DNA of 33,654 nucleotides from a virus, in the IMG/VR virus record IMGVR_UViG_3300033233_000112, positions 1-33,654 of that record. One strand, written 5' to 3'. Shown here in pieces: positions 14,310 to 24,396 of this stretch (position 1 is its first letter; each line of letters opens with the position of its first letter). Under the pieces are notes generated by a model. The model saw only the letters and a program-made list of their open reading frames with translations. It searched no databases and was not told where the DNA came from. The position numbers were made by a program, and so were the translations under genes.

Positions 14310-14819
14310 TTACAATACCTCAAATACGAAGTAATCGTACTCAAATGACAATTCTGCTGTTTGTGGGGCATGACTAGAATAGTCCAATGTAATGTCCCCG
14401 ATATCGCTTAACCAAGCTCCATTTAATTCGAACGATACGAGTCTATTCCCAGCTACGTCCAATTGATATACTGTGATTGAAGACTTATAACCACTCGGGA
14501 ATGCGGCTATATTCGTTTCTGTACCAATCATCACTTCTGACCAAGCTCTCATCTTTTTATAGATATCGAGATTGTCATCAATACGCATTGTACATGTCCA
14601 TGCGTCATATGTTGCGGCCCCTGCATAAAAGTGGGGTTGACCCATAAAATTAGCAGGGGTAGGCGCGTATGTCTTTGTTGGAACTTTTGTTGATTGCACC
14701 AGAATGCTTGCAATAGATGAAGACCCAACTATAGTGGGAAAGTTGATTTCACATTCGAACTGATATGAACGTGCAAGGTCTCTAACTGCACTTCTAAAAT
14801 CTTGTAATTTGAAAGCCAT
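14310..14819 (-). CDS. gp19: Tail tube protein, second paralogue, 169 aa
   Basis: The protein opens MAFKLQDFRSAVRDLARSYQ, then FECEINFPTIVGSSS, and has a GYKSSITVYQLDVAGNR strand and an ELNGAWLSDIG strand, the T4 gp19 tube pattern in a protein of about the usual length (T4 gp19 is 163 aa). It is clearly homologous along its length to the tube gene immediately upstream at 14842-15354, with near-identical N-terminal codons. The clearest divergence is in the central loop (FMGQPHFYAGA versus FMGQHYKLAG) and the C-terminal strands. A GG-rich leader segment precedes the ATG weakly. A terminator hairpin follows its stop. Confidence 0.85.
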   Translation of the reverse strand: MAFKLQDFRSAVRDLARSYQFECEINFPTIVGSSSIASILVQSTKVPTKTYAPTPANFMGQPHFYAGAATYDAWTCTMRIDDNLDIYKKMRAWSEVMIGTETNIAAFPSGYKSSITVYQLDVAGNRLVSFELNGAWLSDIGDITLDYSSHAPQTAELSFEYDYFVFEVL

Positions 14820-14841: not shown

Positions 14842-15354
14842 TTAAAGAACTGTGAATTTGTTGAAGTCATACTGCCAAGTAACAGTCATATCGAGCGGGT
14901 CTCTTTTTGTTGTATCGAGTCCTGAAACTGTAACTGCTGTTGGCCATGCTCCATTCAGTTCGATAGACACAATTCTGTTACCAGCTACGTCCAATTGATA
15001 CAATGTAACAGACGATTTATACCCAGTTGGGAATGCTGAAATGTTCGTTTCAGTACCATGCACAACCTCATGCCACGCTTTCATCTTTTTGTATACGTCC
15101 CAGTTGTCATCGATTCTGAAAGTCCCCTGCCATGGTGTGTACGAGAGGTCGCCAGCAAGTTTATAATGCTGTCCCATGAACCAAGTTTCAGTTGTTGCAT
15201 CAACTTTACGACCTGGGAAGTTGTGAGAATGACAGAGAATATTTGCTAGTGATGAAGAACCTACGATTGTCGGAAAGTTGATTTCACATTCAAATCTATA
15301 CCCTCTCGTAAGGTCTCTAACAGCACTTCTAAAGTCTTGTAATTTGAAAGCCAT
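14842..15354 (-). CDS. gp19: Tail tube protein, first paralogue, 170 aa
   Basis: Opens MAFKLQDFRSAVRDLTRGYR followed by FECEINFPTIVGSSS; later strands read GYKSSVTLYQLDVAGNR and ELNGAWPTAV, ending TWQYDFNKFTVL. AGGAG lies at a good distance before the ATG. It is the promoter-proximal member of a tandem pair, so it may be made in larger amount. Two tube genes after the sheath raise the possibility of a mixed tube or of one copy forming a terminal ring; neither can be decided from the sequence. Confidence 0.87.
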   Translation of the reverse strand: MAFKLQDFRSAVRDLTRGYRFECEINFPTIVGSSSLANILCHSHNFPGRKVDATTETWFMGQHYKLAGDLSYTPWQGTFRIDDNWDVYKKMKAWHEVVHGTETNISAFPTGYKSSVTLYQLDVAGNRIVSIELNGAWPTAVTVSGLDTTKRDPLDMTVTWQYDFNKFTVL

Positions 15355-15779: not shown

Positions 15780-17339
15780 CTAAAAAGTCTTAGTAAAAAC
15801 AATGTTCCCAGAGTCCCAAACACGGTCAAACCCATTGGATAACATGTTTTCGTATTCCGTCATATTTTCATCGAAAACTTGAAGTAGGTCTTTTAGTTTA
15901 TGTTTTTGGTACTTCACTCTGGATTCTAGTTCTCTATTTACGACATACCAATAATTTGGTGGAGATGTGTGTGACAGAGTAAAGAATTTAGAGTACAACT
16001 TCCCATCAGAGTATCTTTTATCAGCATATGTTATGATAGACTTTGGGTTAAATCTGTTCAAAAAATGAGCATAGAGTTTCCCGAATCCACCTACTACAGA
16101 TGTACCCAATAAGTTACAGAACCTCAATATCTCATACTCATAACTCTTATTATACCGAGACTTGCCCAGTGACAATAAACTAACTAAAACCCCCTGGTGA
16201 TATAACCCTAAATGAACAGAAGCATTGATTTTTCCTTGTAGATGGTTTTCTTCAAGAAATTGCTTCGCCATTTCACGGTCGCTTACTTTCACCTCACATT
16301 GACGGCCATAAATTCGTGAGGAGTTTTTCCCAATCTTGTTTTTTATTATAGATTGCCATATCGGTCTCTTGTTTATCCACTCATTTTCAAATATATGAAG
16401 AAGCTGGATATCGATGTTTTCACATGAAGCGGTTTTGTTCAAGTGATAGTTTTTGTTAGCAATCTTGCTTTCGGTGTGCCAGTAAATACCATCGAATTCT
16501 ATACCAAGTTTATAATCTGGTAAATAGATATCGATATGCAGTGGGTGTATTATTGTAGATGTATTTCTGATTATATTTACGACCCCACATTCATCTCGTA
16601 AAAATCGAACGACTTCTTCTTCACCAGAGCTTATATTATTCGATGTTGTGATTTCAACCCCAATTCGCTTTAGATGTCTCACCAGAGTAGTCACTGGTAT
16701 GCTTAACTTATTGTGTAAATCAATCACCGACTCAGATTTTTTATATTCTTCTTTTAGCTTATCTGGGTCTAAAAGTATTGGATACTTTTTAGTTATTTTA
16801 TCGAATCTATTGCTCACTAGTTTATCTTTTATTAACAAAATTCTACCAGGCTTTCTGGCAGCACATTGTCTTGAGCAAGCCTTCATATACCCACGAGTTA
16901 TCGTCCAAAATTTATTTTTTCCTCCACACACCTCACATATTTTTTCTTTTGGGTCTTTCATTATAAACTTATCGTAATATTCCTGAACGCTTATATCATG
17001 TGCTTGTTTTATATGATTCGCTACTCCCTGCAGGTTCTTGAAAAGTTTCTCGCATAATTCACATTTTATAAAATTATCACTTATTCTCTGAGAGACAATC
17101 TTTTCGTTGTGATTCTTAGTATGATAGCTATCTGCACATATTTTTGAACAAAATTTTCTATACCCACCTGTTCCCATAGTACGAAAAGTTGTAGGTTCTC
17201 CGCAGTTTAAACAGAATCCATCATGCCCCTTCTTAATGTACTTGTCATAATATTCTTTACTTTTTATATTATGGGTCGGGAGATGACGAGACAGTGAACG
17301 AAAACTATCTACCTCTTTTTGACATATTGAACAAATCAT
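15780..17339 (-). CDS. Free-standing homing endonuclease, Vsr-like (EDxHD) family with zinc fingers, 519 aa
   Basis: Domains in order: a C2H2 finger (CSICQKEVDSFRSLSRHLPT with its second His after), a four-Cys knuckle (CLNCGEPTTF to FCSKIC), then the same pair again (CELCEKLFKN with HIKQAH; ICEVCGG to CSRQC). A helix-turn-helix (VIDLHNKLSIPVTTLVRHLK) follows at about 215. The nuclease core is at about 235-310 with E in SSGEEEVVRFL, then HIDIYLPDYKLGIEFDGIYW and a following His, the E-D-x-H-D pattern of Vsr-like homing enzymes such as I-Bth0305I. The C-terminal 200 residues resemble a GNAT-like fold (SVHLGLYHQGVLVSLLSLGK). Start chosen at 17339 because GGAGG precedes it; a longer frame would overlap the sheath gene. 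Confidence 0.82.
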   Translation of the reverse strand: MICSICQKEVDSFRSLSRHLPTHNIKSKEYYDKYIKKGHDGFCLNCGEPTTFRTMGTGGYRKFCSKICADSYHTKNHNEKIVSQRISDNFIKCELCEKLFKNLQGVANHIKQAHDISVQEYYDKFIMKDPKEKICEVCGGKNKFWTITRGYMKACSRQCAARKPGRILLIKDKLVSNRFDKITKKYPILLDPDKLKEEYKKSESVIDLHNKLSIPVTTLVRHLKRIGVEITTSNNISSGEEEVVRFLRDECGVVNIIRNTSTIIHPLHIDIYLPDYKLGIEFDGIYWHTESKIANKNYHLNKTASCENIDIQLLHIFENEWINKRPIWQSIIKNKIGKNSSRIYGRQCEVKVSDREMAKQFLEENHLQGKINASVHLGLYHQGVLVSLLSLGKSRYNKSYEYEILRFCNLLGTSVVGGFGKLYAHFLNRFNPKSIITYADKRYSDGKLYSKFFTLSHTSPPNYWYVVNRELESRVKYQKHKLKDLLQVFDENMTEYENMLSNGFDRVWDSGNIVFTKTF

Positions 17340-17358
17340 ATAAGTTTTCCTCCAAAGA

Positions 17359-17394
17359 AAATAAGAGTGACAGAAAATTCTGTCACTCTTATTT
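17359..17394 (-). terminator. Sheath terminator hairpin, overlapping the endonuclease promoter
   Basis: A perfect 17-bp inverted repeat (arms 17359-17375 and 17378-17394) with a 2-base centre is followed on the minus strand by a U-rich run, so it is a good intrinsic terminator for the sheath transcript. Its 5' arm shares bases with the late promoter at 17390-17397, so transcripts from that promoter begin inside the arm and cannot form the full stem. Confidence 0.75.
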
Positions 17395-17397
17395 ATA
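17390..17397 (-). promoter_or_regulatory. T4-type late promoter for the homing endonuclease
   Basis: Minus-strand TATAAATA. The predicted start is near 17384, about 45 bases before the endonuclease ATG, with GGAGG at 17349-17353 between. It lies in the base of the sheath terminator stem. Confidence 0.68.
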
Positions 17398-17427
17398 TCT
17401 CTGAATTTTTTGTATCTTAACTTAACT

Positions 17428-19107
17428 TTACTGAAGCTCTGCGAAATCAACACCAGTCTTTGTGGCAGTGAATCTTACTACTATGAATTCTGCGGCTCTT
17501 GTTGGCTTGACGTATATTTCACACCAGAATTCATTACGGTCAATTCTTTCAGGTGTGTTCACTTTATCGCTTACGTCTACGAGATAGTCGTATACACCGC
17601 GACGGCCCTTGATATCCTCCATGAACGGGATAACCATGTTCTTGAATGTTGCTCTTGTCAAGTTGTCATTCGGTTCGAATGTCACATACTTGGCAGAGAT
17701 TGCAATTGCTTTTTCCATGTAGTTGAACAGCAAGCGCACGTTTACTCTGTCGAATGCTGAAGGCTTTGTCTGAAGTGTCTTCTGTCCCCATACAACGATA
17801 CCCTGACCAGGGAAAGAAACAATAGGGTTAACCTGTGCAACATACATTGTATCTCTGAATGCTTTCGAAGGATTCATAGCTACCTTGATAACATTTCTGA
17901 AGATACCACGATTCAAACCTGCTGGTGCCCACCATGCATCTGTTGTGTCTGCTGTGTACGCATACACACCTGCAACATGACCGCTAGAAGGAACCCAACG
18001 ATTCACATCATTGTACTTGTCGTAGATATACAACCAGTTAGCGTACAATGCGGCGTATGAAGGGTTCTCGTTCAACCTAACTTTTCTGTAGTCGATTGTA
18101 TTCTGCACGGCGTCTGAAAGCGATGCAACACCGACCATGTCAGTCTTAGGGCAGTCAAGAATTGCGAAACAATCTGCTCTCTGAACTGCTACAGCTACAA
18201 TTGCCTTGGCGATAGAAACTGTTGTGTGACTGCCGCCGATAAGATAGTTGATTTCGATATCTTCAGTGTTACCGAAGTATGTCTCGTAACCATCTATGAT
18301 GTCTGAAGCACCTGGCATACCGTCCATACCACCAGCAAGAAGACTTGCACCGATAGCTTGAGGCTGAGTTGCTATTGTGGTGTGGTTGAATGCAAGAATG
18401 TATTTTGATGCATTGTTGATAGCATCTTCTACATACATGTTGTTGCCTTGATGGTCCTTAGCACCTGCGGTGTCTGATACAAGGAAATTCTCTGCAAGTT
18501 CGAACTTACCATCTGTATTCAAGAGGTAAACCTGAACTACGAATTCGTTTGCTGATGCTGGGCCGTACTCAAGAGTTCCGAGTTCTGCTGAACAACCAGT
18601 TGTTTCTGCTGACCAAGCTGATGTAGGGTTAGTCGTGAAGTCTGTATATGCGCGATAGTTAAGAACTGCTACATTGAAGTTTGTGTTACCAAACTCGCCA
18701 GGGAACTTACCATATACACGAAGTTTCTCACCAGTGCCCCAATCATTGATTGCTGCCATGGTTTCCCAATCAGGAATGTAATCACCAGATGTCGATGTGA
18801 TTGTTCCTGCAGTTGTTACACCAATCTGTGCGTTACGAGCATAAGCTGGGTCAACTGCTCTTACGAAAATGATAGTCGATGCATATTTGAGGAAGCCTGC
18901 TACTGTGAAGAAGTCCTCGTATGTCTCATCTGTAGGAACACCAAACTGTTCCGAATATGTCTTCTCGTTTGTTACCTGTGTGCGTACAAAAACTGGGCCC
19001 CATGTTGCGGCACCAACATACGCGGCTATCGATGTTGCTACACCGGGAACCGTTGTAGACATGTCTCTCTCAAGAATATATTCGCCTGGACTTAAAAATG
19101 ATGGCAT
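17428..19107 (-). CDS. gp18: Tail sheath protein, gp18 family, 559 aa
   Basis: The start MPSFLSPGEYILERDMSTTV followed by PGVATSIAAYVGAATWGP is the classic sheath opening ('SPGVx-x-x-E-x-D-x-[ST]' then 'A-F-V-G-x-[AT]-x-x-G-P'). The C-terminal third contains NPIVSFPGQGIVVWGQKTL, the conserved 'N-P-I-x-x-F-P-G-x-G-x-x-[VL]-W-G-x-[KR]-T' block, then RVNVRLLFNYMEKAI and the final beta strand pair that links neighbouring subunits. AAGGAGAAAC precedes the ATG, and a late promoter lies 70 bases upstream. It is shorter than T4 gp18 (659 aa), consistent with fewer surface insertions. The last 12 codons are duplicated downstream. Confidence 0.95.
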   Translation of the reverse strand: MPSFLSPGEYILERDMSTTVPGVATSIAAYVGAATWGPVFVRTQVTNEKTYSEQFGVPTDETYEDFFTVAGFLKYASTIIFVRAVDPAYARNAQIGVTTAGTITSTSGDYIPDWETMAAINDWGTGEKLRVYGKFPGEFGNTNFNVAVLNYRAYTDFTTNPTSAWSAETTGCSAELGTLEYGPASANEFVVQVYLLNTDGKFELAENFLVSDTAGAKDHQGNNMYVEDAINNASKYILAFNHTTIATQPQAIGASLLAGGMDGMPGASDIIDGYETYFGNTEDIEINYLIGGSHTTVSIAKAIVAVAVQRADCFAILDCPKTDMVGVASLSDAVQNTIDYRKVRLNENPSYAALYANWLYIYDKYNDVNRWVPSSGHVAGVYAYTADTTDAWWAPAGLNRGIFRNVIKVAMNPSKAFRDTMYVAQVNPIVSFPGQGIVVWGQKTLQTKPSAFDRVNVRLLFNYMEKAIAISAKYVTFEPNDNLTRATFKNMVIPFMEDIKGRRGVYDYLVDVSDKVNTPERIDRNEFWCEIYVKPTRAAEFIVVRFTATKTGVDFAELQ

Positions 19108-19176
19108 CGTTGTTTCTCCTTTTCATGTGCTGACCGCCCAGACTCGGCTGGGTTATCCGTTAATTGTATCTGTAAG

Positions 19177-19184
19177 TATTTATA
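19177..19184 (-). promoter_or_regulatory. T4-type late promoter of the sheath gene
   Basis: Minus-strand TATAAATA, 70 bases before the sheath ATG, in the intergenic gap after the terminase. The leader contains a small hairpin (about 19136-19152, five G-C-rich pairs) just ahead of the ribosome-binding site region. Confidence 0.75.
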
Positions 19185-19214
19185 TCTTGCGAAATTATAT
19201 ACTTACATTGCAAT

Positions 19215-19238
19215 CATTTTGCTGATGTCAGCAAAATG
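19215..19238 (-). terminator. Palindromic hairpin after the terminase stop
   Basis: An 11-bp perfect inverted repeat with a 2-base centre begins 8 bases after the terminase stop. No clear U-run follows on the minus strand (UUGCAAUG), so it may be a weak terminator or an RNA stability or processing element that separates terminase from sheath mRNA. Confidence 0.4.
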
Positions 19239-19245
19239 GTCACTT

Positions 19246-21240
19246 TTAAACGAATCCAAACCCCTCCATTACAGGCATTACAGGCATTTCAGAAGTGCTG
19301 TCAGTCGAGTCGAGTTCATCTCCATCCTCATCGCGTTCAGGTTTCATCTTCAAATCTTCAGTGATGTAGTCTGTGTCTTCGAGGATATCAGCTTTGATAA
19401 TCCATAGAGCCCAATACAAACTTGTCACACAGTCATCGTTTTCACCGTCATCAGCGCCATAGACACCCGGCTTAGTCTCTACGAACTTGGATAGCTCATA
19501 GATAGTGTCAGAGTCTTTAACGACCAGTCTATTGTCTTCGAGCATTATCTTCAGAGTGTCAGTCGCTTGATGTTTGGTCCGCTTAGTCGCTCTGATTCCG
19601 ATTTCTCTTGTCTTCGAGTCGAGTTCGCCTGTAGATGCGGCTTTGTAGTTAACCAAGTTCTCGTACTCTGCATCATGCCACAACCAGTCACATGTAGCTT
19701 GGCCTATGTCATTGTTTTCTATACAGATATACGCATCATTGTAACGAACTGCAATCTTATGAGCGACCTTAGCGAATGCTCTAGTATCAATCATATTGTT
19801 GCGATAAGTTGCAACTTGCACGAAAGGAATCTGTGTAATATCAAGGACTTGACATATAGAGTAATCACCACCAGTACCCTTTGCTACGTCCATACCAACT
19901 GAATAAATTCTCTTAGGTATCGGTTGCTCCCAGATTCTCATGTTCCCCGAGAACTCTTCAGCAATGGGATTCCAGCTTTCAAGTGATTCTAATGTTTGAG
20001 ATTTTATGAGAGTTTTAGATGAACCAAGAAAGCAATTGTGTGATAACACATCATTCGTAAAATAAGACTTCCCATTGACGTTTAGTAAGTCATATAGAGG
20101 TTCAAAAATATCAGAACTTATTATATCTGTTACTCGCACATCTCCATTTTTTGTTTTAATTAAATCCCCAGCAATCAAATCTTTACAGAAAATTTGGCCA
20201 GATTGATTAAAAACTATATGATATGGTGAGCATTGTAATTCATTATCACCGAGACTTAGCTTCATTAACGGCAAATCTCTCGTTGCTCCAACCCCATCAA
20301 AAGACACGAAACCATTTGGGCCTTCTACTTCCCAGTTAGAAATTTTCTTTGTCTTTATGACTCTTTTGAATTCTTCTTCGGTTTTATAGTTCTTTTTTGA
20401 ATTTGTGCGTTTTGAACAGATACAGAGATTTGATATATCTCCTACGATGTGTGGGTTTATGTTATTTTTGAACCCATAAAAGCAACTTATTTTGTGGTCT
20501 ATTGATGGGGAATCTATCTTATTTTTGTGAATAAGATTCAATAATTTCCCAGTATAATAATCTTTACCGTCCCAATGTTCGTATAAAGAATCGATGTGCT
20601 TTCTTGTTACTTTCCATACTTCATTCTGATATATCTGGAAATCACTTTGTTCGGATAGTGAAGTCCATCCTTCGTATTTCTCCCCATGCTCTCTTCTTTG
20701 TTTAGATGAGAGATAATGTGAGCTATTAAATTTCTTTAGACATGTTGCCCTAACTTTAGATTTTACTTCTTCGTTTTGAGAGCAAAATTCTGTACCCAAT
20801 CTCAAAAGACATGTAGCTTTTACTTTATCTCTTATTTCTTTTGAAGCAGATGACCAAATAGTGCCAAATCTTCTCTGACTTGATTTAATAACTTTATCTT
20901 TGAAGTCTGATAAATGTGCTGTGTTTTTAACCCCAAATCTTTTGAGATTTGTTTCTTCTCTTTTTCTTGCGATATCAGTCATGACTTCTTCAGATTTGTT
21001 CTTATATGTTTGGCTACGTTTTAAATTTATTTCTGGTGAAGTTACTCGTTGAAGCCTAGAAGTCTTTACTTTGTCGAGTTGAAGTGTGGTTTTTGAACCA
21101 TACTTTAAAAGGCATGTTGCTTTTACTTTATCTTTTACTTCCTTTGCTCCACTAGCAGATACATGACCGTACTTTAGAAGGCATGTAGCTTTTCTTTTAG
21201 CGGATATAATATCTATCTCTTCTTGGGTTCTTTTTCTCAT
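19246..21240 (-). CDS. terL: Large terminase C-terminal part preceded by HNH homing endonuclease and C-terminal intein half, 664 aa
   Basis: Three parts. Residues 1-299: homing endonuclease with about six repeats of the type KVKATCLLKYG...EVKDK (DNA-binding) and an HNH-type core (SIDHKISCFYGF, then GDISNLCICSKRTNSKKN). Residues 300-402: Hint domain, opening SNWEVEGPNGFVSFDGV, with block B (CSPYHIVFNQSGQIF, then LIAGDLIKT) and C-terminal blocks (YDLLNV, YFTNDVLSHN) ending in Asn402, followed by Cys403 as +1 residue. Residues 403-664: terminase nuclease domain, starting CFLGSSKTLI, with acidic residues in GMDVAKGTGGDYS, CIENNDIG and ENDDCVTSLYWA. Splicing with the upstream gene would rebuild an uninterrupted terminase. 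The ATG has no ribosome-binding site and begins where a late transcript should start. Confidence 0.85.
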   Translation of the reverse strand: MRKRTQEEIDIISAKRKATCLLKYGHVSASGAKEVKDKVKATCLLKYGSKTTLQLDKVKTSRLQRVTSPEINLKRSQTYKNKSEEVMTDIARKREETNLKRFGVKNTAHLSDFKDKVIKSSQRRFGTIWSSASKEIRDKVKATCLLRLGTEFCSQNEEVKSKVRATCLKKFNSSHYLSSKQRREHGEKYEGWTSLSEQSDFQIYQNEVWKVTRKHIDSLYEHWDGKDYYTGKLLNLIHKNKIDSPSIDHKISCFYGFKNNINPHIVGDISNLCICSKRTNSKKNYKTEEEFKRVIKTKKISNWEVEGPNGFVSFDGVGATRDLPLMKLSLGDNELQCSPYHIVFNQSGQIFCKDLIAGDLIKTKNGDVRVTDIISSDIFEPLYDLLNVNGKSYFTNDVLSHNCFLGSSKTLIKSQTLESLESWNPIAEEFSGNMRIWEQPIPKRIYSVGMDVAKGTGGDYSICQVLDITQIPFVQVATYRNNMIDTRAFAKVAHKIAVRYNDAYICIENNDIGQATCDWLWHDAEYENLVNYKAASTGELDSKTREIGIRATKRTKHQATDTLKIMLEDNRLVVKDSDTIYELSKFVETKPGVYGADDGENDDCVTSLYWALWIIKADILEDTDYITEDLKMKPERDEDGDELDSTDSTSEMPVMPVMEGFGFV
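20035..20343 (-). other. C-terminal intein (Hint) half, about 103 aa
   Basis: About 103 codons, ending in SHN before Cys. It contains block B (Q-C-S-P-Y-H) as well as blocks F and G, so nearly the whole Hint fold is on this half. The opening 'PNGF-x-x-F-x-G' and overall length match, from memory, the atypically split AceL-TerL intein of phage terminases, whose C-half is about 104 residues. Canonical split inteins keep block B on the N-half. Confidence 0.85.
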
Positions 21241-21245
21241 ACTAT

Positions 21246-21253
21246 TATTTATA
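21246..21253 (-). promoter_or_regulatory. T4-type late promoter between the two terminase halves
   Basis: Minus-strand TATAAATA followed by ATAGT and then ATG. If initiation obeys T4 spacing (element at -13 to -6), the first transcribed base is the A of the ATG, giving a leaderless mRNA for the endonuclease-intein-terminase gene. No Shine-Dalgarno sequence is present, which fits. Confidence 0.55.
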
Positions 21254-21264
21254 TAAGAGAAAAT

Positions 21265-22203
21265 TTAATCAAAACTACGGTTGAATAGCTTTGATATTTG
21301 AACATTTTTGATTTGACCAGTTTTTTTGTTTCTAATTTTTATTCTCGTATCTTTTGCTACACAGTTACCGTACTCTTGATTGAACTTGGTCTGGCCAATG
21401 TTTCTGATTGTCTCAGTCTTCCAAAGGTCATCTCTACCTTCAACTTCCCAATAGTCTACTCGGAAGTGCTTGAAGTCATTCTTGCCGTTCTTGGCTTTGT
21501 TGTAGATGTCATGAAAGTGATTGAGTCCGTTAGGGGTCGAAACGATGATAATCTTACCCTCTGTAGTCGCGGAGATTGTCGGGTACACGCTCGTATAGAA
21601 TGCTTCAGCAATACCTCTGCGAACGAATGCGAACTCATCGAGAAACAATACGTTTGCAGTAATACCACGGAGACCATCTTCAGTAGTAGCTACAGATGTG
21701 CATGAACTCCCATTTTCTAACGTACAGCCATGCTTCTGCCATTCAACAACCCCAATTTGCAACCAATAAGGAAGTCGCTCGTATGCAATACGAACCTTCT
21801 GAAAGATTTCCTTAGCAATAGCCAGTTTGTTTGCGATGATAGCTATCTTCTTGTCTTTATTGAATAAAAGATAGTGAACGATGTAGATGCTGGTGATAGT
21901 AGATTTACCTACCTGGCGAGCGGCTAGAACACATGTGAACCTGTTGTTGTGAATATGACTCAACATCTTCTTTTGATAAGGACGAAGTCTCACCAGCGTC
22001 TTACCGATATTAGGGTCAACGATTGTGCAATAATGTTCAGCGAAGTAATTCACATCGGCCGCGCACCGTGCAATCTCGGCTATCTGCTCATGTGAGTATT
22101 CGATAGGGACGAATGCTTTCTTGATTGATGGATTTCCATCATATGAAGACCAACTAGGGAGCTTGTCGTAGCTCCCCTTCAAAACTCTCGATGCTGTTGC
22201 CAT
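21265..22203 (-). CDS. terL: Large terminase N-terminal ATPase part plus N-terminal intein piece, 312 aa
   Basis: Residues 1-280 are the packaging ATPase: Walker A AARQVGKST at 94-102, Walker B NVLFLDE at 184-190, and coupling motif VSTPNG at 221-226. Residue 281 is the first intein Cys, and 281-312 (CVAKDTRIKIRNKKTG, then QIKNVQISKLF) is intein block A, ending in TAA. The N-extein ends FNQEYGN and joins CFLGSSKTLI of the downstream gene, giving the continuous sequence expected of gp17-type terminases. Start at 22203 is chosen because AGGA precedes it and it lies 4 bases after the stop of the upstream gene; an ATG at 22233 would overlap that gene. The enzyme pumps DNA into the prohead. Confidence 0.92.
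   Translation of the reverse strand: MATASRVLKGSYDKLPSWSSYDGNPSIKKAFVPIEYSHEQIAEIARCAADVNYFAEHYCTIVDPNIGKTLVRLRPYQKKMLSHIHNNRFTCVLAARQVGKSTITSIYIVHYLLFNKDKKIAIIANKLAIAKEIFQKVRIAYERLPYWLQIGVVEWQKHGCTLENGSSCTSVATTEDGLRGITANVLFLDEFAFVRRGIAEAFYTSVYPTISATTEGKIIIVSTPNGLNHFHDIYNKAKNGKNDFKHFRVDYWEVEGRDDLWKTETIRNIGQTKFNQEYGNCVAKDTRIKIRNKKTGQIKNVQISKLFNRSFD
21268..21363 (-). other. N-terminal intein fragment, 32 residues
   Basis: 32 codons from the splice-site Cys (TGT at 21361-21363) to the TAA. Only block A is present (C-V-A-K-D-T-R-I). This cut, shortly after block A, is the rare short-N type of split, not the usual site between blocks B and F. It is about 7 residues longer than the 25-residue AceL-TerL N-half that I recall. 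Confidence 0.85.
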
Positions 22204-22207
22204 TTGA

Positions 22208-22393
22208 TTATTTTCCTGTAGCCGCGCTACCATACTTATCTCGGTATGCTTTGGCTTTCTTTTCGTATTCTATCTGTGCCTGTACTTTGGCTTTGGTGTA
22301 TGTCAGAGAAGGATTATTATGCATGATAGAAGCAATCATGCTCTCTAGTTTGTCTAGTTTGTCTGCTTCTTCATTGAATTGCTTGAATCTCAT
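22208..22393 (-). CDS. Small helical protein upstream of terL with M-x-F-K-x-F start, 61 aa
   Basis: Starts MRFKQFNEEADKLDKLESMI after a good AAGGAG site and ends 4 bases before the terL start, so the two are probably coupled. It is almost wholly helical and highly charged (TYTKAKVQAQIEYEKKAKAY). In T4 the gene before 17 is the small terminase 16 (164 aa); this protein is far too short to be an ordinary TerS and shows no helix-turn-helix. Its N-terminus resembles the M-x-F-K-x-F-x-x-E-E group in this region. Function not known; a truncated TerS or an internal head protein are both possible. Confidence 0.6.
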   Translation of the reverse strand: MRFKQFNEEADKLDKLESMIASIMHNNPSLTYTKAKVQAQIEYEKKAKAYRDKYGSAATGK

Positions 22394-22408
22394 ATATAGT
22401 TCTCCTTT

Positions 22409-22855
22409 TTAGGTTTCTTCTACTCTGTATCCGTATCCGACTGCTCTAGCGAGAGCTGGGTTGTTGTCAACTATCGAATGAACTTCTGTTCTGTCTTCAT
22501 TCTTAGACCAATGAAAAGCTGTATACCACTTTCCAGACATCATGGTCGTGCTTATCTCAACTGCGTGAAGAACAGCATCCAAATAAAGAGGAATGCAAGC
22601 AGACCCGTAGATATTTATGACCTTAGCAATCCAATCATGACCAGGGTCGCCGTGCCACACATATAGGTCATTCTTCAGTAGAAGACCTTTGATAACGAAT
22701 GTAGAGAATTTACCCTGCTCCTTATCAATCTCTCGAAGAAGCATATCCATTTCACTCTTGCTAGGATTTTTGAACACTTCAATAGTCCCAGTTCGATAGC
22801 TGAAAGAGTTGTAGAATTCTTCTTTGAGATATGCAGAGAATCTTTTACCAACCAT
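22409..22855 (-). CDS. KNP-family protein with capsid-targeting-like N-terminus, 148 aa
   Basis: Begins MVGKRFSAYLKEEFYNSFSY; the 'R-F-x-x-Y-L-K-E-E' segment matches the other N-termini of this cluster with a short extra leader. Next comes GTIEVFKNPSKSEMDMLLRE and later NDLYVWHGDPGHDW, the two shared motifs of the family. The second half (FHWSKNEDRTEVHSIVDNNP) is unique to this member. Its ATG overlaps the stop of the preceding gene (TAATG). If L-K-E is cut by the prohead protease, about 12 residues would be lost. Function unknown; an internal or injected head protein is the leading idea. Confidence 0.65.
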   Translation of the reverse strand: MVGKRFSAYLKEEFYNSFSYRTGTIEVFKNPSKSEMDMLLREIDKEQGKFSTFVIKGLLLKNDLYVWHGDPGHDWIAKVINIYGSACIPLYLDAVLHAVEISTTMMSGKWYTAFHWSKNEDRTEVHSIVDNNPALARAVGYGYRVEET

Positions 22856-23081: not shown

Positions 23082-23483
23082 CTAGCTAACGATAATGTTT
23101 GCGCCAATCAATGACTGTAAGTTTTTGTTTTTCTTCATAGTATTTATAATGAAGTCAAAATCCTTTTTCACATAGAAATTGTAATGATTGGGTAAAGAAT
23201 AAGAAGAAACCTCAAGTCTATTCCCGGGATAGATATAAAATGGAATCCAAGTAGATGTAGGGAGTTTGTTCTTACTAGCCACAACTTCATGCTCGATATA
23301 ACCAGACGCCCACATGTAAGTATCACCAGTTTCTGGATTCAACCATCCACGAACTTCGTCATCGAGCTTGCGTATTTCCGAAAACTCATCCTTCTTTGGG
23401 TTCTTGAATATCTCTACAGTCATCCCACCTGTGCCTTTGAGTGCTGTGAAATATTCTTCTTTTAAAAATGTCTTAAATGTCAA
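23082..23483 (-). CDS. KNP-family protein with capsid-targeting-like N-terminus, TTG start, 133 aa
   Basis: Begins MTFKTFLKEEYFTALKGTGG, then MTVEIFKNPKKDEF, and DTYMWASGYIEHEVV, so both shared family motifs are present with a His after the Y-x-W strand. The start codon is TTG and overlaps the TGA of the endolysin gene (TTGA), so translation is probably coupled and weak. A late-promoter-like TATAAATA lies inside the gene at 23141-23148. Likely a packaged or head-associated protein; no enzymatic motif is seen. Confidence 0.65.
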   Translation of the reverse strand: MTFKTFLKEEYFTALKGTGGMTVEIFKNPKKDEFSEIRKLDDEVRGWLNPETGDTYMWASGYIEHEVVASKNKLPTSTWIPFYIYPGNRLEVSSYSLPNHYNFYVKKDFDFIINTMKKNKNLQSLIGANIIVS

Positions 23484-24028
23484 TGTGATATCCCCATCTC
23501 TGGTTCTATAAGAGCTATCTTCGCAACTTCGTATCTTCTCAATCTGTCAGAGAGTCCATTGAACCCACCATTGATACTCTTGGTAATGGCTTTCATATCC
23601 CCTAAGTCAGCAAGAGCATTCAACTTATTTATAGTCCAATATGCTACCGCTATTCTGAATCCAACTTCAGGGGTCGCGGCTATCGTAGGATTATTCTCTA
23701 AGTCGAGCTTGAGGAGAGCTCCATATTTCTTGTAATTAGAACGACCTGTCAACTGAATAGGTCCTCTTCCTTTATAGCGAACTCCATCACCCTTGTAAAT
23801 GTTGCCTAAGTCTTTTCTTCCCTCATAAGCAGAGCCATTTGCAATCTCTTCCATATATCGCAAGTCTGCTGATTCATGACCGAGTTGAGCAATGAAAGCC
23901 GCTTCTCTGAGTAGCGTATTGATTTCACCCTCTATCATAGCCTTCTGTAGAAAAGGGAAATACAATTCAGCTTTAACCTTCGGTAGTTGTGTCATACAAG
24001 ACATCAACTTCTTCAGTGTTATGTTCAT
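23480..24028 (-). CDS. Endolysin, glycoside hydrolase 19 (chitinase-like), 182 aa
   Basis: GH19 signature: FIAQLGHESADLRYMEE with H51-E52-S53 (catalytic Glu52), SAYEGRKDLGN, then RYKGRGPIQLTGRSNYKKYG, the conserved G-R-G-P-I-Q-L-T-G-R-x-N-Y block. GH19 enzymes of phages cleave peptidoglycan glycan strands. No signal peptide or membrane segment is seen, so release needs a holin encoded elsewhere. It is flanked by KNP-family genes, with ATGA overlap upstream and TTGA overlap downstream, so it is embedded in that cluster and not in a lysis cassette. Confidence 0.88.
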   Translation of the reverse strand: MNITLKKLMSCMTQLPKVKAELYFPFLQKAMIEGEINTLLREAAFIAQLGHESADLRYMEEIANGSAYEGRKDLGNIYKGDGVRYKGRGPIQLTGRSNYKKYGALLKLDLENNPTIAATPEVGFRIAVAYWTINKLNALADLGDMKAITKSINGGFNGLSDRLRRYEVAKIALIEPEMGISH

Positions 24029-24396
24029 CCTAGTATCTCCTTTACATAGTCAGCGATTTTCTTCCAAGCGAGTCTTCCCCTTTCAGGTATTTCTCGATAG
24101 CTTCTGTTATATGTTTTGTTCTGATACATCTGATACCATTTGTACCCTTTTCTCTTGGCTTTGAAAGTCTTTTCAATAGCGAACTCCACATCAGCATGTA
24201 AAGAACCAGAGCCGTCCCAGATATATAAAGTCTGCCGAGTGTCATCCCAAAGACCACGAATTTCGTATGAGCCCTTAGCGTGTTTGATAAGGTCAAAGAC
24301 TTCAATAGGAGAGGGGTTCTTCAGTATCTCCACTGAACCTTTCCATCCATCAATCCAAGTGAAATGTTCTTCGTTAATGTAATCTTTGAATGTCAT
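24025..24396 (-). CDS. KNP-family protein with capsid-targeting-like N-terminus, 123 aa
   Basis: Begins MTFKDYINEEHFTWIDGWKG, then SVEILKNPSPIEVFDLI, IRGLWDD and QTLYIWDGSGSLHADVEFAI. This is the clearest example of the shared domain: V-E-I-[FL]-K-N-P, an R-G strand, then Y-I-W-D and a His seven residues on. The C-terminal 40 residues are basic (KAKRKGYKWYQMYQNKTYNR). Its ATG overlaps the stop of the frameshifted relative upstream (ATGA). No known activity is recognised. Confidence 0.68.
   Translation of the reverse strand: MTFKDYINEEHFTWIDGWKGSVEILKNPSPIEVFDLIKHAKGSYEIRGLWDDTRQTLYIWDGSGSLHADVEFAIEKTFKAKRKGYKWYQMYQNKTYNRSYREIPERGRLAWKKIADYVKEILG

What the first reader, a model, noticed from the sequence alone, without database searches (positions are those of the whole stretch)
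19246..22203. Large terminase carries an atypically split intein with an HNH homing endonuclease fused to the C-intein
The terminase ATPase part ends EYGN then Cys and only 32 intein residues (block A). The downstream gene starts with an HNH endonuclease with repeated DNA-binding units, then a complete rest-of-Hint domain including block B, then SHN-Cys and the terminase nuclease domain. Known short-N split inteins of the AceL-TerL type (as I recall them) have the same cut position and similar C-half length but no fused endonuclease. The fractured-gene inteins of marine phages have free-standing endonucleases between halves. Here the nuclease is part of the C-half and would be spliced away with it, so one polypeptide should do both trans-splicing and homing. 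DNA packaging would depend on this splicing.
Basis: partly seen in the sequence, partly recalled or inferred. Interest (0 to 1): 0.92.

Follow-up and report, generated by a model that had tools for sequence, protein, structure and literature searches.

The report
Split terminase intein with fused endonuclease
In this T4-like phage the DNA-packaging motor protein is encoded in two pieces that are predicted to be stitched together by a self-splicing element (a split intein) with a DNA-cutting homing enzyme fused into its second half; split terminase inteins of this type turn out to be common in phages, but the fused form is rare.

Summary
ORF A (start 22203 or 22233, stop 21265) encodes the TerL ATPase plus a 32-residue N-intein. 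ORF B (21240-19246) encodes DUF7487 repeats and an HNH nuclease, the C-intein, and the TerL nuclease domain. I reject that: about 100 related viral loci end the N-half at the same place; ORF B begins 5 nt after a TATAAATA late promoter, as do many free-standing endonucleases at this split site; and contig L175 carries the same HNH-C-intein fusion with overlapping halves and a good ribosome-binding site. The two intein pieces fold together (pLDDT 94-98; best PDB match VidaL). Exteins are collinear with intein-free TerLs. Novelty is less than claimed: Aeromonas phage PX29 17B is already annotated as GIY-YIG endonuclease plus C-intein, Vibrio phage Va1 has another nuclease fused there, and Vibrio phages K469 and 1.244.A fuse one to the N-half. 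The HNH/DUF7487 fusion (window and L175) is a new variant. Splicing, cleavage and homing were not tested. By-product: intervening endonuclease genes often start almost leaderless behind a late promoter.

The parts
21364..22203 (-). N-extein: TerL ATPase part (Walker A AARQVGKS, Walker B VLFLDE), ends EYGN; ATG at 22203 has an SD-like AGGA, ATG at 22233 does not
21268..21363 (-). N-intein, 32 aa, CVAKDTRIKIRNKKTGQIKNVQISKLFNRSFD (C1 = codon 21363-21361)
21265..21267 (-). TAA stop of ORF A, in frame with ORF B
21246..21253 (-). TATAAATA, T4-type late-promoter motif, ends 5 nt before the ATG of ORF B; one of ten, all on the coding strand
20338..21240 (-). Endonuclease part of ORF B (about 301 aa): DUF7487 DNA-binding repeats, then HNH core (WDGKDYY...SIDHKIS...NLCI...TNSKKN)
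20035..20337 (-). C-intein, about 101 aa, NWEVEGPNGF...SPYH (block B)...LYDLLNV (block F)...VLSHN (block G)
19249..20034 (-). C-extein: TerL nuclease domain starting CFLGSS; acidic motifs GMDVAKGT, CIENND, DDGENDDC

Best explanation
This is a naturally and atypically split class-1 intein in gp17/TerL of a T4-like phage. The halves come from two genes. A 32-aa N-intein tails the ATPase domain. ORF B, with its own late promoter and an almost leaderless start, makes one polypeptide of HNH homing endonuclease + C-intein + TerL nuclease domain. The intein halves associate, splice EYGN to CFLGSS to make full-length TerL (inferred), and release a stable HNH-C-intein protein (inferred). That protein is expected to cut intein-free terL alleles and copy the whole split cassette into them (inferred). 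The fusion most likely arose by joining a free-standing HNH gene, of the kind that commonly sits between split TerL halves, directly onto the C-intein: relatives of this HNH end 44-65 aa after the catalytic Asp-His, and the C-intein starts at about that distance in the window. Shown here: sequence anatomy, conserved catalytic residues, predicted fold, collinear exteins, conserved promoter position, a second example with the same architecture. Not shown: splicing, cleavage, mobility.
For: Anatomy and families. Exteins join collinearly with intein-free TerLs. In over 150 viral loci with the same TerL junction, the N-half ends about 31-44 aa after C1 and the C-half typically has about 95-130 aa before HN|C. 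The same split with free-standing GIY-YIG, HNH_3 or Vsr-like endonucleases in the gap. L175: HNH (DUF7487 type) fused to the C-intein; N- and C-genes overlap and gene B has GGAGGA before a GTG start. TATAAATA within 60 nt of the endonuclease ATG in 51 of 65 loci, within 2-13 nt in 27 (window 5 nt). Read-through model: N-intein and C-intein blocks mostly pLDDT 94-98, top PDB hit VidaL (E 1.5e-8), then gp41-1 (TM 0.72). HNH residues D248, H249, N271, N280 invariant in 26 aligned sequences. HNH region pLDDT about 89-98.
Against: ORF B has no Shine-Dalgarno and lies in frame with ORF A across one TAA, so a low-level read-through product that splices in cis cannot be excluded. No close DNA-level relative of this window was found to confirm the stop. 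No biochemical evidence exists. The record is incomplete, so a second terL cannot be ruled out.
Confidence: 0.86

Rival explanations
1. A contiguous cis-splicing intein with an HNH nuclease in the loop after block A, broken by one nonsense mutation (or sequencing error), or read through at TAA.
For: Same frame, a single TAA, 8 open codons before the ATG, no Shine-Dalgarno. Contiguous mini-inteins exist at this TerL site (L020, L023, L024, L037, L048, L130).
Against: The stop falls exactly where split relatives end. A TATAAATA promoter sits before the ATG as in free-standing endonuclease genes. None of the contiguous relatives seen carries a nuclease at this loop. L175 has the same fusion with overlapping genes. 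TAA is the commonest stop in the window, so it is not recoded; no tRNA gene, hence no suppressor, in the window.
Confidence: 0.08
2. The intein no longer splices: TerL works as two separate domains, or a second intact terL serves, and the fused nuclease is a decaying selfish gene.
For: Record is partial; no experiment.
Against: C1, block B His, block F Asp, HN|C+1, Walker A/B, TerL nuclease acidic motifs and HNH residues are all intact; only one TerL nuclease domain in the record.
Confidence: 0.05
3. The split is bridged at RNA level by a self-splicing intron, as in ICP1 terL (PMC10448857).
For: terL introns with nearby homing endonucleases exist.
Against: No intron family of Rfam hits 18800-22700; both sides are clear Hint sequence.
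Confidence: 0.01

Closest known systems
Aeromonas phage PX29 gp17A/17B (also AsFcp phages; contig L176 is similar)
   Same: TerL split at almost the same place, 33-aa N-intein, endonuclease fused in front of the C-intein in one ORF with the TerL nuclease domain; GenBank notes say so.
   Different: Endonuclease is SegE-type GIY-YIG/NUMOD3, not HNH/DUF7487; genes overlap; intein inserted two codons earlier (QEH|C).
L175, IMGVR_UViG_3300040801_000600
   Same: DUF7487-like repeats + HNH fused to C-intein + TerL nuclease domain; N-half stops at the matching point.
   Different: Only about 27-31% identity; extra N-terminal cysteine-rich part; overlapping genes with a Shine-Dalgarno; insertion one codon earlier (FN|C).
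AceL-TerL / GOS-TerL / VidaL atypically split inteins
   Same: Short N-intein, long C-intein; VidaL is the best structural match.
   Different: Characterised examples, as I recall them, carry no endonuclease in the C-half.
Fractured genes of Dassa et al. 2009; Pseudomonas phage MIJ3 PolB (PMC6892783)
   Same: Split intein with a homing endonuclease at the break; MIJ3 also uses an HNH.
   Different: There the endonuclease is a separate gene (for MIJ3; Dassa from memory); here it is fused to the C-half.
Vibrio phage Va1; Vibrio phages K469, 1.244.A, VP-1
   Same: TerL split at this site with a nuclease fused to one half.
   Different: Va1: DUF559/Vsr-like nuclease on the C-half. K469, 1.244.A, VP-1: GIY-YIG on the N-half.

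Membership tests
Class-1 intein (Hint) | Cys/Ser at 1, block B His, block F Asp, block G His-Asn, Cys/Ser/Thr at +1 | tested here: met
   C1; SPYH; LYDLLNV; SHN; C+1
Class-1 intein (Hint) | The two pieces form one Hint fold | tested here: met
   Model pLDDT mostly 94-98 in both halves; VidaL, gp41-1 and CatC hits; single chain with TAA read as Gln
Class-1 intein (Hint) | Protein splicing | not testable with these tools
   needs co-expression
Atypically split TerL intein (AceL type) | N-intein of about 25-40 aa, split before block B, in TerL | tested here: met
   32 aa; relatives about 31-44 aa
Fractured gene with free-standing endonuclease (Dassa type) | Endonuclease is a separate ORF between the halves | tested here: not met
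   HNH is in the C-half ORF; no ATG/GTG/TTG codon near the HNH-C-intein joint in the sequence
Contiguous endonuclease-containing intein | One ORF from N- to C-extein | tested here: not met
   TAA at 21265-21267
HNH homing endonuclease | Catalytic Asp-His / Asn / Asn motif and DNA-binding repeats | tested here: met
   DH, NL, N..K invariant in 26 aligned sequences; DUF7487 repeats; no PDB homologue found by sequence
HNH homing endonuclease | Cleaves intein-less terL | not testable with these tools
   needs an in-vitro cleavage assay

The most novel reading that the evidence does not exclude
TerL maturation and endonuclease release are coupled: the C-half of the packaging motor is made only as a fusion to the homing nuclease, from the nuclease's own near-leaderless late promoter, so the phage must make one nuclease per motor subunit, and trans-splicing is the step that frees (and perhaps activates) the nuclease.
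Probability: 0.3. Interest if true: 0.72.

Novelty: new variant of a known kind. Interest (0 to 1): 0.52.

Why it matters
It shows that the endonuclease of a split intein need not be free-standing: several nuclease families have been fused, to either half, at the same TerL break. That gives a natural series (contiguous, split without nuclease, split with free nuclease, fused to N, fused to C) for testing how fractured genes evolve. The C-half could be a source of split inteins that tolerate a large N-terminal fusion on the C-intein. It ties a selfish element to an essential motor gene.

Tried and rejected
Single-protein scan of viral contigs with ORF B: no hit. Alignment A1 as a scan query: not conserved enough. 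Rfam for introns: nothing. Alternative genetic code: rejected, TAA ends most genes. Empty-site 'operator' upstream of ORF B in the window: not found (p 0.85). Neighbouring Hef-like gene at 15780-17453 as a relative of the fused HNH: no similarity. Literature searches for PX29 or gene 17 inteins found no paper discussing the split TerL of these phages. Dassa 2009 is not held.

Full report
OBSERVATION. The two ORFs are as described. ORF A carries the TerL ATPase part and ends 32 residues after EYGN, counting the Cys that follows it. ORF B carries DUF7487 repeats, an HNH-type nuclease, the remainder of a Hint domain, SHN-Cys and the TerL nuclease domain. Against intein-free TerLs of Pelagibacter phage HTVC008M and Rhizobium phage RHph_I1_18 the N- and C-exteins are collinear, with the same three residues between QEY and F. 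Walker A, Walker B and the nuclease acidic motifs are intact. The first question was therefore whether this is a split intein at all.

IS THE SPLIT REAL? Four lines say yes. In the split ones the N-half stops about 31-44 residues after C1, and the C-half typically has about 95-130 residues before HN|C. The window's stop is at 32. (2) In most loci a separate endonuclease gene fills the gap: GIY-YIG, HNH_3 or Vsr-like. In 51 of 65 (window included) a TATAAATA late-promoter motif lies within 60 nt upstream of the endonuclease ATG, in 27 only 2-13 nt upstream, mostly without a Shine-Dalgarno. In the window it lies 5 nt upstream of ORF B. TATAAATA occurs ten times in the window, all on the coding strand, against 2.3 expected. 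(3) Contig L175 has the same DUF7487-HNH-C-intein-TerL fusion, but there the two genes overlap in different frames and gene B has GGAGGA before a GTG start, so that architecture does not depend on the window's stop codon. (4) TAA ends most genes in the window, and no tRNA gene that could suppress it was found. Contiguous mini-inteins at the same site exist, but those seen carry no nuclease at this loop.

FOLD. AlphaFold2 on the stretch from KFNQEYGN to CFLGSSK with TAA read as Gln, using 54 relatives, gives pLDDT mostly 94-98 for both intein pieces. Foldseek puts VidaL, an atypically split intein, first, followed by gp41-1; the consensus intein with atypical split site (6dsl) is also found. 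A profile of the C-intein finds CatC at 1e-22, gp41-1 and VidaL by sequence. A second model of ORF B with HNH relatives gives pLDDT about 89-98 over the HNH. Forty-seven viral loci encode relatives of this HNH. The free-standing ones end 44-65 residues after Asp-His, and only the window and L175 continue into a Hint domain. Asp-His, Asn-Leu and Asn are invariant in 26 aligned sequences. No solved structure is related by sequence.

MECHANISM (inferred beyond the anatomy). N-half and C-half associate, splice TerL, and release a 32-aa N-intein and an about 402-aa HNH-C-intein protein, which can act as homing enzyme on intein-free terL. I see no start codon near the HNH-C-intein joint, so the C-half should be made only as the fusion.

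KNOWN OR NEW. Split TerL inteins of this type are widespread, and nuclease fusions already exist in deposited genomes: PX29 17B (annotated, GIY-YIG + C-intein), Va1 (DUF559/Vsr-like + C-intein), and N-half fusions in K469, 1.244.A and VP-1. Escherichia phage kaaroe has a TnsA-like nuclease fused to the N-half at another TerL site. PolB of phage MIJ3 has a split intein with a free HNH gene (PMC6892783). The HNH/DUF7487 fusion in the window and L175 is a new variant of this kind. The insertion point QEYGN|CF is shared only with L018 (QEFGN|CF), and nearly with L017 (QEMEA|CF); other inteins sit one or two codons earlier.

BY-PRODUCT. In many GIY-YIG and some HNH relatives the bases around the N-intein stop and just before the TATAAATA repeat the empty terL site, for example GAATGTGAGTTTTTTGGATTATAAATA, reading E|C E F F G. 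16 of 48 endonuclease-bearing loci reach p<=0.01 against random stretches of the same locus; these loci are related, so they are not independent. T4 I-TevI binds a homing-site-like operator over its late promoter and represses itself (PMC2988022). The same design is suggested here, but the window itself does not show the site copy (p 0.85).

LIMITS.

Noticed in passing
L041, L055, L040, L066, L097 and others: the roughly 20 nt before the endonuclease gene: A copy of the empty TerL target site (E|CEFLG coding sequence) sits against the TATAAATA late promoter of the free-standing endonuclease between split TerL halves (16 of 48 loci at p<=0.01); looks like an I-TevI-style autorepression operator.
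   Followed up: partly
IMG/VR loci; window 21246-21253: Endonuclease genes between split TerL halves often begin 2-13 nt after TATAAATA without a Shine-Dalgarno, i.e. almost leaderless late transcripts (27 of 65 loci).
   Followed up: partly
L126, L020, L037, L173, L017; VP-1 (L003): Single TerL genes carrying two or three inteins at different sites (Walker A, Walker B, ATPase/nuclease linker).
   Followed up: no
window 15780-17453 (-): Hef/MobE-like homing endonuclease (phrog_3339, 1.4e-111) between the tail sheath and tail tube genes; the likely start is after the TATAAATA at 17390, not the GTG at 17453.
   Followed up: no
window 14310-14819 and 14842-15354 (-): Two tandem tail tube genes (both phrog_45).
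   Followed up: no
window 22409-22855, 23082-23483, 24025-24396 (-): Three small paralogous proteins next to terL sharing an N-terminal F..YL.EE.F....G..E.FKNP motif; unknown function (22-27% identity).
   Followed up: partly
L010 (Salicola phage SCTP-2, 4465-5358): C-half of a split TerL intein at the Walker A site with no N-half annotated in the neighbouring kilobases; it contains the start of a second intein.
   Followed up: no
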